A stretch of 64,000 nucleotides of DNA from an uncultured Flavobacteriales bacterium (GTDB taxonomy: Bacteria; Bacteroidota; Bacteroidia; Flavobacteriales; Crocinitomicaceae). The notes beneath the pieces are model-generated. The model had not been told where the DNA came from and did no database searches. It saw nothing but the letters and a program-made list of their open reading frames with translations. Made by a program: the position numbers and the translations under genes. The stretch lies in contig CAMLFH010000020.1 in NCBI GenBank assembly GCA_946479285.1, forward strand, positions 10,832 to 74,831. The letters run 5' to 3'. Below, in pieces: positions 1 to 2,331 of this stretch (the first letter of the stretch is position 1; each line of letters begins with the position of its first letter).

Positions 1-1070
1 CTAACAGCCAGCGATTTCCCCTGTAATTGTTCGGAAATTAAAGAACTTCCTACCAAAATTTCAAGTTTTTCGGTAATGGAATAGGCTGCCTGCGATTGAA
101 TGTCGAATTGATTGGAGTAATACCGTGAATCCAAATAACCTTGTAAATTGAGATAGGTTGAATCCAGGTACTGAAGATTGTTTTTTTGATAATTCACCGA
201 AGAAAAAACCTCCCAGCGATTCTTTTTGAATTGATGGTTCAATGATCCGCTCAGACCATAGCCATTTAAATATTGTGCGGCATTGCTGTTGTAAAAAATA
301 ACGGCACCTGCCAGGTCTTTTTGGTAATCGTTACCGGAAATCCGTAATTGGAACCGGTTGTATTGATTGGGTGAAAATTGGGTCGAAAGTGTTCCGAAGT
401 ATTCCAGCAGGCTGTTGTTTACTCTTCGGTCTTTAATGGTTGTGTTGCCGTTCAGGTAGGAAAATGGATAAGAACCGCCGTAAGAACGGATTTTCCCGGT
501 TAAAGTTCCTGCCCATTTTTTGGATCTTTTCTGGAGCATCAAATAGCCTTCGTATTGATCGAAAGAACCTGCTTGAGCACCAAGAATAAGATTCCGCGTG
601 TTTGTCCCAACATACGAATGAACTGATTCTACATTGACAACTACTCCGGCCAGTTTTGCATGAATTGGAATTTGAGTGCGGGTAGGAGAAAGGGTGATTA
701 ATTCCAGTTTTTCGATAAAATCTACCGGAAAAGAACTTAAGTCGGCCTGGCCGCTTTGTGTGGTTGAAACAGAAGAATGATCCTGGACCAATGCGGTATG
801 TCCGGCGCCCAAACTTCTGAAACTAACCGTTTTCAAACCGCCAACATCACCGTAATTCTTGATTTGAAGCCCCGGAAGCAAACTCAGGATTTGTCCCAGG
901 TCATTTGCTAGTTTGTTTTGAATTTTATCGGTAGACAATTCAACCTGGATACTATTCTCCTTGTCATTGCCCGGTGAAATAACAACTTCTTCAATCGGTT
1001 TAACCTCCTGCCCGAAAACCGGACAAGAGGTTAGAATCAACAGGGTTGGTATGGAAAATTTTAAAATCAA
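1..1070 (-). CDS. TonB-dependent receptor, BtuB-like, N-terminal part (runs off window)
   Basis: Outer-membrane TonB-dependent receptor, cut by the window start. Reading the minus strand gives an open frame of 356 codons. It starts at a TTG (1068-1070) that directly abuts the TAA of the upstream gene, followed by a signal peptide (MILKFSIPTLLILT...VFG|Q). The mature N-terminus EVKPIEEVVIS resembles a TonB box, and a plug domain follows (LLPGLQIKNYGDVGGLKTVSFRS split over about residues 55-80, then a region like the QDG...G..DLS..P.. segment of BtuB). Beta-barrel strands begin after about residue 150. No CarboxypepD_reg domain precedes the plug. It is the second gene behind a cobalamin riboswitch, so cobalamin is the likely substrate; that is inferred from context. 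No ATG is available near the start, so translation is probably coupled to the upstream gene. Confidence 0.88.
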   Translation of the reverse strand, partial: MILKFSIPTLLILTSCPVFGQEVKPIEEVVISPGNDKENSIQVELSTDKIQNKLANDLGQILSLLPGLQIKNYGDVGGLKTVSFRSLGAGHTALVQDHSSVSTTQSGQADLSSFPVDFIEKLELITLSPTRTQIPIHAKLAGVVVNVESVHSYVGTNTRNLILGAQAGSFDQYEGYLMLQKRSKKWAGTLTGKIRSYGGSYPFSYLNGNTTIKDRRVNNSLLEYFGTLSTQFSPNQYNRFQLRISGNDYQKDLAGAVIFYNSNAAQYLNGYGLSGSLNHQFKKNRWEVFSSVNYQKNNLQYLDSTYLNLQGYLDSRYYSNQFDIQSQAAYSITEKLEILVGSSLISEQLQGKSLAV

Positions 1071-2021
1071 TTAGATTTTGCTGATGCGTGTTCTTGCAAT
1101 TCCTTCCGAAGTAAGTGTCTCAACAATATAGGTTCCGGATTGAAGATCACTTAAATCAATCTCCTGGTTTCCGTTGGTTGTTTGCGATCTTACCAATTCA
1201 CCTGCCAAAGAGTAAACGGAAATCTCTCCGCTTCCTGACTTCACAGTCATTTTACCAGTGGTGGGATTTGGATAAACGTCTTGTTTCGCAAGGCTCAATT
1301 TGTTCACAGAAGCAGTTCCGTAAGTGATGTTATCCAATGCAAAGTATGCCGGAGTATTGATTCCCCAGTTACCAATATCAGAAGATTCCAATTCAAACTC
1401 CAGGAATTGAACTTCTCCTAAAGAAGTCAGGTCAACAGTTTGCCATGTATTTAGGATATAATCCTCCATGTTATTTGCAAAACGAAAATCAGCCAAATAG
1501 AAAACAACCGTATCGGTAACCGCACTTTGAGCATCTCTACCAACGATCAATAAACGGAAAAAGTCTTCACCGTTCGTTCCATCCGGATTTCCGTCAGCAC
1601 CGTTAACAGAACCAAATACTTTACCGAAAGCATCTCCGTCACGCATGGAAAGAGCTGCATAAGTTGAGTTTGTCAATTGAATACTGCCGATTACTTTCTC
1701 AGTTCCGAAATCAATGGATGAACTACCGTAATTAACAGAATAGTTTGCACTTCCGTTTCCACCGTTTCCGGTAAAAGCAGAAAAGTCGTTGGTGTAACCT
1801 GCTGTAGTAACATCGTTCGTGTTGGAATAAATGAATCCGCCGGACCAGTAACCGGTGTAGCTGTTTTCAAAATAAACACCTCCCGAAGTAAATCCGCCGC
1901 TGGAATCAGAACCGCTCCAATAGGAGTTTGGAGTTAGTGTCAGGTCGTCAAAAGTAACAACCGTTTGTGCTTGTGTGAATTGGATGCAGAACACACTAAC
2001 TGCGAGTAACATTTTTTTCAT
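1071..2021 (-). CDS. Secreted DUF4465-type protein with T9SS type A sorting domain
   Basis: 316 residues. A signal peptide (1-18, ...FTQA|Q) is followed by a beta-rich Gly/Ser/Asn/aromatic body with the pattern of DUF4465 proteins (TFDDLTL near the start, FENSY..GYWSGGF, WQTVDLTSLG, YFALDNI before the tail). A T9SS type A C-terminal domain starts near residue 249 (VYPNPTTG) and ends RISKI. It should be exported across the inner membrane by Sec and across the outer membrane by T9SS. It is the first gene after a cobalamin riboswitch and directly precedes a BtuB-like receptor, which suggests a surface or secreted B12-binding accessory. The function is inferred. I recall B12-binding surface proteins BtuG and BtuH from gut Bacteroides, but cannot verify here whether BtuH belongs to this family. 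Confidence 0.9.
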   Translation of the reverse strand: MKKMLLAVSVFCIQFTQAQTVVTFDDLTLTPNSYWSGSDSSGGFTSGGVYFENSYTGYWSGGFIYSNTNDVTTAGYTNDFSAFTGNGGNGSANYSVNYGSSSIDFGTEKVIGSIQLTNSTYAALSMRDGDAFGKVFGSVNGADGNPDGTNGEDFFRLLIVGRDAQSAVTDTVVFYLADFRFANNMEDYILNTWQTVDLTSLGEVQFLEFELESSDIGNWGINTPAYFALDNITYGTASVNKLSLAKQDVYPNPTTGKMTVKSGSGEISVYSLAGELVRSQTTNGNQEIDLSDLQSGTYIVETLTSEGIARTRISKI

Positions 2022-2144
2022 TGCTTAAAGCATTTAATAAATTAATAAAAGCAAATGAAAAAATCAGAGGAATAAGAACAAACTGAAGGAAGCGATTCCC
2101 TCATTTCGAACTCGACTTTAATCTGAAGTCTTCATTCAATATTT

Positions 2145-2316
2145 GTTCAAGGCAGGTATTCTGACTTCTCTCCGGTTACTTCTCCTTCCCATTCCGCCGT
2201 GGCGGATCAGTGGACTTATTGAAGACCGTTTAATAAGAGTTACAGCTGCAGATACAGTCTCGGATTCACACCGAATTCCCTATTATCTCTTGTAAACTAT
2301 TACAATCGAACCTAAA
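2145..2316 (-). promoter_or_regulatory. Cobalamin (AdoCbl) riboswitch
   Basis: Read on the minus strand, the conserved blocks of the B12 riboswitch appear in order. GGGAATTCGGTGTGAATCCG (around 2264-2283) is followed by a CTGTATCTGCAGCTGTAAC segment, a GCCACGG/GGAATGGGAAGG block, and the 3' B12 box AAGTCAGAATACCTGCC ending near 2151. A TAnnTTTG promoter lies immediately upstream (2324-2331). Between the aptamer and the ATG at 2021 sits a 7-bp stem with a UCGC loop (2085-2102), which may belong to the expression platform. High cobalamin should lower expression of the DUF4465 and TonB-receptor genes; that follows from what is known of the family. Confidence 0.95.
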
Positions 2317-2323
2317 ACTGGCG

Positions 2324-2331
2324 CAAAGGTA
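2324..2331 (-). promoter_or_regulatory. Promoter -7 element of the riboswitch transcript
   Basis: TACCTTTG on the minus strand matches the Bacteroidota -7 consensus TAnnTTTG. It places the transcript start a few bases before the riboswitch aptamer. Confidence 0.75.

What the first reader, a model, noticed from the sequence alone, without database searches (positions are those of the whole stretch)
1..2331. B12 riboswitch controlling a T9SS-exported DUF4465 protein and a BtuB-like receptor
Sequence shows a cobalamin riboswitch, its promoter, a protein with signal peptide plus T9SS sorting tail, and a TonB receptor in one minus-strand unit. Surface B12-binding accessories (BtuG, BtuH) are known as lipoproteins in gut Bacteroides. 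A version that reaches the surface through T9SS would be a different way of building a B12 capture system in environmental flavobacteria. B12 binding by this protein is inference.
Basis: partly seen in the sequence, partly recalled or inferred. Interest (0 to 1): 0.7.

Follow-up and report, generated by a model that had tools for sequence, protein, structure and literature searches.

The report
Vitamin B12 capture via type IX secretion
A vitamin-B12-sensing RNA switch controls a secreted protein of a known B12-binding family and an outer-membrane B12 importer; related freshwater and marine bacteria keep the same operon and appear to place several of their B12-capturing proteins on the cell surface by type IX secretion instead of by lipid anchors.

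Summary

Near relatives keep this. The riboswitch lies 93-229 nt upstream in 55 of 58 loci; 56 of 56 scanned proteins carry the tail. The operon continues with btuB, a BtuG-like lipoprotein and T9SS-tailed orf4 (44 of 58). In the wider family sample, 11 of 99 genomes encode DUF4465 as a tail-less lipoprotein instead.

Part is in print: PMC12751083 counted sorting motifs in DUF4465 proteins; PMC13398666 showed that the Fluviicola taffensis member binds B12.

The parts
2324..2331 (-). TACCTTTG, a -7-like box of the Bacteroidota promoter type (motif recalled); overlaps the unpaired first bases of the riboswitch model
   Evidence: by eye; TA(C/T)CTTTG in 7 of 8 aligned leaders, TATCTTCG in L006; no clear -33 box seen
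2134..2330 (-). cobalamin riboswitch aptamer (RF00174), full length
   Evidence: cmscan 82.8 bits, E 7.1e-19
2053..2137 (-). leader hairpin region between aptamer and start codon, possible expression platform: strongly kept GACTTCAGATTAAAGTC, then a hairpin with changed pairs, then T-rich stretches
   Evidence: RNA fold z -3.13; conserved in relatives; 7 of 13 consensus pairs show two-sided changes, but consensus energy only -4 kcal/mol
1071..2021 (-). DUF4465 (BtuJ-like) protein, 316 aa: signal peptide about 1-18 (by eye), B12-binding-type jelly roll about 19-237, T9SS tail
1341..1358 (-). codons 222-227, NTPAYF, the HI loop whose Tyr contacts B12 in BtuJ1 (Y245)
   Evidence: T223, P224, Y226, D230 in 36 of 36 aligned proteins; role of the loop from PMC13398666 and PMC12751083
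1074..1277 (-). codons 249-316, T9SS type A C-terminal sorting domain
3..1070 (-). 5' part (356 aa, TTG start as listed mechanically) of a TonB-dependent receptor of BtuB type, running off the window
   Evidence: PF07715 36.8 bits; L004 orthologue vs 8blw_A BtuB1 E 1.1e-58
2484..3116 (+). divergent TPR protein, flanking; together with the lumazine-synthase-like gene 3125-3613(+) the conserved chromosomal neighbour
   Evidence: same neighbours in L001-L004 and L068; lumazine synthase name recalled, not scanned

Best explanation
The window holds the start of a B12-uptake operon of a Fluviicola-like flavobacterium. When cellular cobalamin is low, the riboswitch lets expression run into btuJ (DUF4465), btuB and, in relatives, btuG and orf4. 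BtuJ goes through Sec, then through the T9SS outer-membrane channel by its C-terminal tail, and stays on the surface or is released there. It binds B12 in a jelly-roll pocket closed by the NTPAYF loop and hands it to the BtuB-BtuG receptor complex for TonB-driven import. Orf4, another predicted T9SS cargo, is probably a BtuH-like second capture domain. Shown here: riboswitch, gene order, domains, tail, fold similarity, conservation. Shown in print for a close relative: B12 binding. Inferred: T9SS export, hand-over to BtuB, the direction and mechanism of riboswitch control, and the role of orf4.
Against: No export or binding experiment on this protein. That P0032 is F2I9N3 is inferred, not matched by accession. 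PMC13398666 speaks of 'periplasmic targeting signals' for non-lipoproteins and never of T9SS. The 58 loci were found with the window protein itself, so they are near relatives; in the wider sample 11 of 99 DUF4465 genomes have a tail-less lipoprotein form, and 2 of the 120 database proteins listed (P0102, P0108) carry no PF18962 mark. 9 of 99 sampled DUF4465 genomes show no listed riboswitch upstream (the match list was cut). The receptor in the window is a fragment and scores under the BtuB equivalog cut-off. The window's own genome is not held.
Confidence: 0.85

Rival explanations
1. The protein is B12-regulated and T9SS-exported but is released, to scavenge B12 in the medium or on vesicles as a shared or recaptured carrier, rather than acting as a cell-bound partner of BtuB.
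For: B. theta BtuJ1/BtuJ2 work on vesicles (PMC12751083, abstract and passages); T9SS cargo can be released or anchored (PMC10202324, start of abstract in search listing).
Against: The gene directly abuts btuB (window: DUF4465 stop ends at 1071, receptor frame starts at 1070), as expected for a local partner; no direct test either way.
Confidence: 0.35
2. The tail is vestigial or only partly used, and the protein acts in the periplasm between BtuB and BtuF.
For: PMC13398666 assigns non-lipoprotein members periplasmic signals.
Confidence: 0.08
3. The DUF4465 protein binds something other than B12 (for example a carbohydrate) and sits in the B12 regulon for another reason.
Confidence: 0.04

Closest known systems
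BtuJ1/BtuJ2 (DUF4465, IPR027828) of Bacteroides thetaiotaomicron
   Same: fold, HI-loop motif, B12-uptake locus with btuB and btuG
   Different: B. theta proteins are lipoproteins; the window protein has a plain signal peptide and a T9SS tail
Fluta, F2I9N3 of Fluviicola taffensis (PMC13398666)
   Same: same genus-level group; B12 binding shown by co-purification and spectra; its presumed sequence P0032 is 74% identical to the window protein and T9SS-tailed
   Different: T9SS, type IX and sorting have 0 occurrences in the main text; its riboswitch and operon are not named in the parts read
B. theta locus 1 (btuB1, btuG1 with fused BtuH domain, btuJ1)
   Same: the best solved sequence matches of receptor, propeller and DUF4465 are from this locus
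   Different: gene order; BtuH-like domain is a separate T9SS-tailed protein (orf4) instead of a fusion; BtuJ is T9SS-tailed, BtuG stays a lipoprotein
DUF4465 proteins with C-terminal sorting motifs counted in PMC12751083 (229 of 824 IPR026444, 88 of 824 IPR013424)
   Same: this architecture at the level of domains
   Different: counted as targeting statistics; T9SS and type IX have 0 occurrences in the main text

Membership tests
Cobalamin riboswitch (RF00174) | covariance-model score over the curated cut-off, full aptamer | tested here: met
   82.8 vs 31.5 bits, positions 1-189
Cobalamin riboswitch (RF00174) | B12-dependent change of expression | not testable with these tools
   needs a reporter or in-line probing
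DUF4465 / BtuJ | PF14717 over cut-off and augmented jelly-roll fold | tested here: met
DUF4465 / BtuJ | B12-contacting Tyr in HI loop | tested here: met
   Y226 in NTPAYF; 36 of 36
DUF4465 / BtuJ | cobalamin binding | not testable with these tools
   published for other members incl. F. taffensis (PMC13398666)
T9SS cargo (type A sorting domain) | C-terminal sorting domain over cut-off plus Sec signal peptide | tested here: met
   PF18962 50.3 vs 27 and TIGR04183 49.9 vs 23 bits; signal peptide by eye only
T9SS cargo (type A sorting domain) | T9SS present in host | tested here: inconclusive
   SprA in 16 of 16 relatives; the window's own genome is not held
BtuB | TonB plug and barrel of BtuB type | tested here: inconclusive
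   plug in window, barrel beyond the edge; full-length L004 orthologue vs BtuB1 E 1.1e-58 but under the TIGR01779 cut-off
BtuH (orf4, relatives only) | BtuH-type globular fold | tested here: met
BtuH (orf4, relatives only) | sequence homology to BtuH domain | tested here: inconclusive
   hhalign vs 11 relatives of the L093 BtuH domain (itself E 4.6e-124 to 8blw_B and 1.4e-55 to 7biz_A): E 4.6e-4, prob 32.8, 35 columns; 60 column shuffles reach at most score 22.5 vs 33.5; domain-only profile finds nothing in the PDB
BtuG (second riboswitch-linked gene, relatives only) | BtuG-type propeller | tested here: met
   profile A3 vs BtuG-type chains (8bmx_D, 8p97_B and others) E about 1e-10 to 3e-9; vs BtuG alignment E 2.5e-9; PF16819 in only 2 of 30 members

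The most novel reading that the evidence does not exclude
In Fluviicola and its relatives, T9SS is used as a general delivery route for a B12-capture layer. BtuJ, a BtuH-like protein and a BtuG-like propeller, each a lipoprotein in gut Bacteroides, are all predicted T9SS cargo linked to cobalamin riboswitches; within one family sample BtuJ even comes in either form, lipid-anchored or T9SS-tailed. Where BtuJ is absent, an unrelated T9SS-tailed protein (about 510 aa, L080, L082) can fill the same slot and may be a new kind of B12-binding protein.
Probability: 0.55. Interest if true: 0.68.

Novelty: new variant of a known kind. Interest (0 to 1): 0.52.

Why it matters
B12 is limiting in many waters and soils, and gut Bacteroides compete for it with lipid-anchored surface proteins. 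If these environmental relatives deliver the same capture proteins by type IX secretion, then the anchoring route is interchangeable, T9SS gains a role in vitamin uptake, and riboswitch-linked T9SS-tailed genes become a practical way to find new B12-binding proteins. This can be tested in culturable Fluviicola.

Tried and rejected
Rejected: chance arrangement; a BtuG or BtuH identity for the window protein (the best six structures are all DUF4465). No megablast match of window 1-3200 in the plasmid collection, so no sign of a plasmid.

Results against my reading. Plain Foldseek ranks BtuH only 35th for orf4, with TM 0.30. A domain-only orf4 profile finds no PDB chain at E up to 10; the full-length profile reaches BtuG1's H domain only at E 0.027. 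Of the corrin contacts that PMC8941943 lists for BtuH2 (Tyr510, Trp511, Trp577, His476; section 8 read), orf4 shows no clear counterpart by eye. The invariant Asn and nearly invariant Phe of its FENGF motif could match Asn399 and Phe401, but I place those by spacing only. Four loci with 7 kb or more of sequence to the right show no orf4 (L006, L024, L034, L044), and in L030, L045 and L046 other frames lie between btuG and orf4. PF16819 is found in only 2 of 30 members of the second riboswitch-linked family. The T9SS form of DUF4465 is not universal: 11 of 99 genomes of the family sample have frames of 247-268 aa, and all 11 read as lipoproteins without a tail (by eye); 8 of these 11 have the riboswitch upstream. 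T9SS-tailed BtuG proteins in more distant genomes: 17 of 17 scanned carry the tail, but I fetched 20 for their long frames and dropped 3 (L117, L126, L136) after seeing their ends, so this is no rate. RF00174 was found in just those 3 of the 20 stretches; most of the other stretches begin inside the upstream receptor gene or on the wrong side of it, so the operon leader was not seen. Of three inspected genomes without DUF4465, one (L081) has btuB itself first. The consensus fold of the leader is weak (-4 kcal/mol). A crude regular-expression census of lipoboxes and tails proved unreliable; I used Pfam instead and quote only gene order and distances from that call. The full-length DUF4465 alignment does not match BtuH, as expected.

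Dropped rows. L055 (cut) and L056 (broken frame) were left out of the tail scans. Four RF00174 places were added to the cut list before the count; two of them belong to genomes outside the sample. The 23 further riboswitches were mostly higher-scoring matches, not drawn at random, and one of them (L084) is itself a DUF4465 locus.

Full report
WHAT IS THERE. On the minus strand, window 2330-2134 is a full-length cobalamin riboswitch aptamer (82.8 bits, cut-off 31.5, E 7.1e-19), the only Rfam match at gathering score in the 64 kb. Next comes a 316-aa protein (1071-2021) with DUF4465 (PF14717, 167.4 bits) and a T9SS type A sorting tail (PF18962 50.3 bits; TIGR04183 49.9 bits). A TonB-dependent receptor (1070-3) starts at once and runs off the window; its plug domain is recognised. 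The window's own genome is not held, so all extension is through relatives.

CONSERVATION OF THE ARRANGEMENT. A scan of genome contigs with the window protein gave 58 loci. RF00174 occurs in 56 of the 57 genomes that hold them, over the cut-off in 55 (20 of 20; 36 of 37, with 35 over cut-off). It lies on the same strand 93-229 nt (median 107) upstream of the DUF4465 start in 55 of 58 loci, in one of them (L017) with a score under the cut-off. The misses are L036, where a btuB-like gene comes first, and L043 and L047, which begin at a contig end (gene order). In a family sample of 150 genomes, 99 have DUF4465 and 139 have the riboswitch. In 90 of the 99 the riboswitch lies 263-439 nt upstream of the domain match, a lower bound because the match list was cut. 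The T9SS tail is in 36 of 36 proteins of one scan (window, 27 loci, 8 database proteins) and 29 of 29 loci of the other: 56 of 56 loci scanned, 2 of 58 not scanned. In the protein database, 118 of the 120 best relatives listed (the window's own included) carry PF18962.

TWO WAYS OF ANCHORING. The tail is not universal farther out. In 11 of the 99 DUF4465 genomes of the family sample the frame is only 247-268 aa. Read by eye, all 11 proteins have a lipoprotein signal (such as GLVSCKKD) and end with the DUF4465 domain, without a tail; 8 of the 11 have the riboswitch upstream. So within one family sample the same riboswitch-linked B12-binding domain comes either lipid-anchored or T9SS-tailed. PMC12751083 reports that these signals never co-occur in one sequence, which agrees.

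THE REST OF THE OPERON. In relatives the order is DUF4465 - btuB - btuG - orf4 in 44 of 58 loci. Median overlap is 14 bases between btuB and btuG (52 pairs) and 8 between btuG and orf4 (46 pairs). Several other loci end within the operon; four with enough sequence show no orf4 (L006, L024, L034, L044). L004 btuB matches BtuB1 of B. theta (8blw_A, E 1.1e-58). L004 btuG is a DUF5074 propeller matching BtuG1 (8blw_B, E 4.2e-69), and its N-terminus reads as a lipoprotein by eye. So the operon corresponds to the btuB1-btuG1-btuJ1 part of B. theta locus 1. Genes matching btuF and btuC lie divergently upstream in L007, L010, L011, L013 and L022 (Brumimicrobium, Lishizhenia; Pfam run on the L013 pair only).

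A SECOND RIBOSWITCH UNIT. I looked behind 23 further riboswitches, mostly better-scoring ones (5, 18; one of them, L084, is itself a DUF4465 locus). In 11 the first gene is a secreted protein of about 550-650 aa: L063, L064, L066 and 8 of 18, one of them (L079) in two broken frames. Its family has a T9SS tail in 29 of 30 aligned members. Its N-terminal part matches BtuG-type chains as a profile (E about 1e-10 to 3e-9; 8p98, sister entry of 8p97, is named BtuB3G3, the BtuG2 label of the others is recalled) and the BtuG alignment (E 2.5e-9). It is therefore a BtuG-like propeller with a T9SS tail. L064 comes from the same genome as L004. Other riboswitch targets are B12-independent methionine synthase (L074), ribonucleotide reductase (L077) and, in L083, an operon with a tetrapyrrole methylase and CbiX. 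Of three inspected genomes with no DUF4465 match, two (L080, L082) have a different T9SS-tailed protein of about 510 aa with no other Pfam domain first, followed by btuB, and one (L081) has btuB first.

NEED AND MEANS. Of 16 relatives tested, 16 have the T9SS protein SprA, 16 have B12-dependent methionine synthase, and 0 have CbiC of corrin-ring synthesis. The CbiX operon in L083 (genome G018, outside those 16) warns that not every family member need be unable to make B12.

HOW IT PROBABLY WORKS. The aptamer is followed by a strongly kept GACTTCAGATTAAAGTC and a longer hairpin with changed pairs, then T-rich sequence. I infer control of transcription, as proposed for B. theta (PMC12751083, passages); the consensus fold is weak and this is not tested. 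Low B12 would switch the operon on; BtuJ and orf4 would leave through T9SS, BtuG would be lipid-anchored on BtuB, and captured B12 would be passed to BtuB. Export, hand-over and control are inferred.

WHAT IS KNOWN. PMC12751083 (section 8 and passages read) reports that of 824 DUF4465 sequences 229 carry IPR026444 and 88 IPR013424, 33% a lipoprotein signal and 21% a periplasmic one; that IPR026444 is the T9SS sorting domain and IPR013424 PEP-CTERM is recalled. PMC13398666 (text parts 1-4 of 5 read) shows B12 binding for eight members, including F. taffensis F2I9N3, and states that over 70% are lipoproteins. P0032, the F. taffensis DUF4465 protein, has the tail and is the only PF14717 match in genome G103, whose 4,633,577-base contig agrees with that of P0032; that it is F2I9N3 is my inference. 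In the held library, searches for DUF4465, T9SS with cobalamin riboswitch, type IX secretion with BtuB and vitamin B12, BtuG with T9SS (one paper, PMC12578637, passages, about the BAM complex), DUF5074 with T9SS (none) and Fluviicola with cobalamin gave no paper that I saw describing a T9SS-delivered BtuG, BtuH or whole B12 system. I read the listings, and only the passages named; subscription papers are largely missing from that library.

VERDICT. What goes beyond is the suite: riboswitch-linked BtuJ, BtuH-like, BtuG-like and unclassified proteins with T9SS tails, and the exchange of lipid anchor and tail on BtuJ within one family sample. That is a new variant of a known kind.

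Noticed in passing
P0048, P0050, P0061 and others; G069:C38 and G085:C174: DUF4465 proteins of about 530-570 aa, some with more than one DUF4465 match in one frame, the listed database ones with a T9SS tail: possibly two B12 sites per protein.
   Followed up: no
L151-L161: Eleven DUF4465 proteins of 244-256 aa that read as lipoproteins without a T9SS tail, in the same family sample as the tailed ones: lipid anchor and tail look exchangeable.
   Followed up: partly
L080:2383-3909(-), L082:990-2525(+): Unclassified T9SS-tailed protein of about 510 aa first behind the cobalamin riboswitch, then btuB, in genomes without a DUF4465 match; candidate new B12-binding family.
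   Followed up: partly
L063:1312-3255, L064:1322-3280, L066:1328-3136: Riboswitch-linked BtuG-like propeller with HYR-like domains and a T9SS tail.
   Followed up: yes
   Followed up: partly
L083:2-3275(-): Cobalamin riboswitch before an operon with a tetrapyrrole methylase and CbiX: some relatives may make corrinoids.
   Followed up: partly
L074:1213-3534(-); L077:635-3339(-): Cobalamin riboswitches before B12-independent methionine synthase and before ribonucleotide reductase.
   Followed up: partly
L006:14139-15563(+): Where orf4 is expected behind btuG there is a 474-aa frame that reads by eye like an ATPase; orf4 is missing.
   Followed up: no
L079: The riboswitch-linked BtuG-like gene is split into two frames, apparently broken or a sequencing error.
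   Followed up: no
L120:4421-4466(+) and 4287-4242(-): Two Acido-Lenti-1 RNA matches on opposite strands close together.
   Followed up: no
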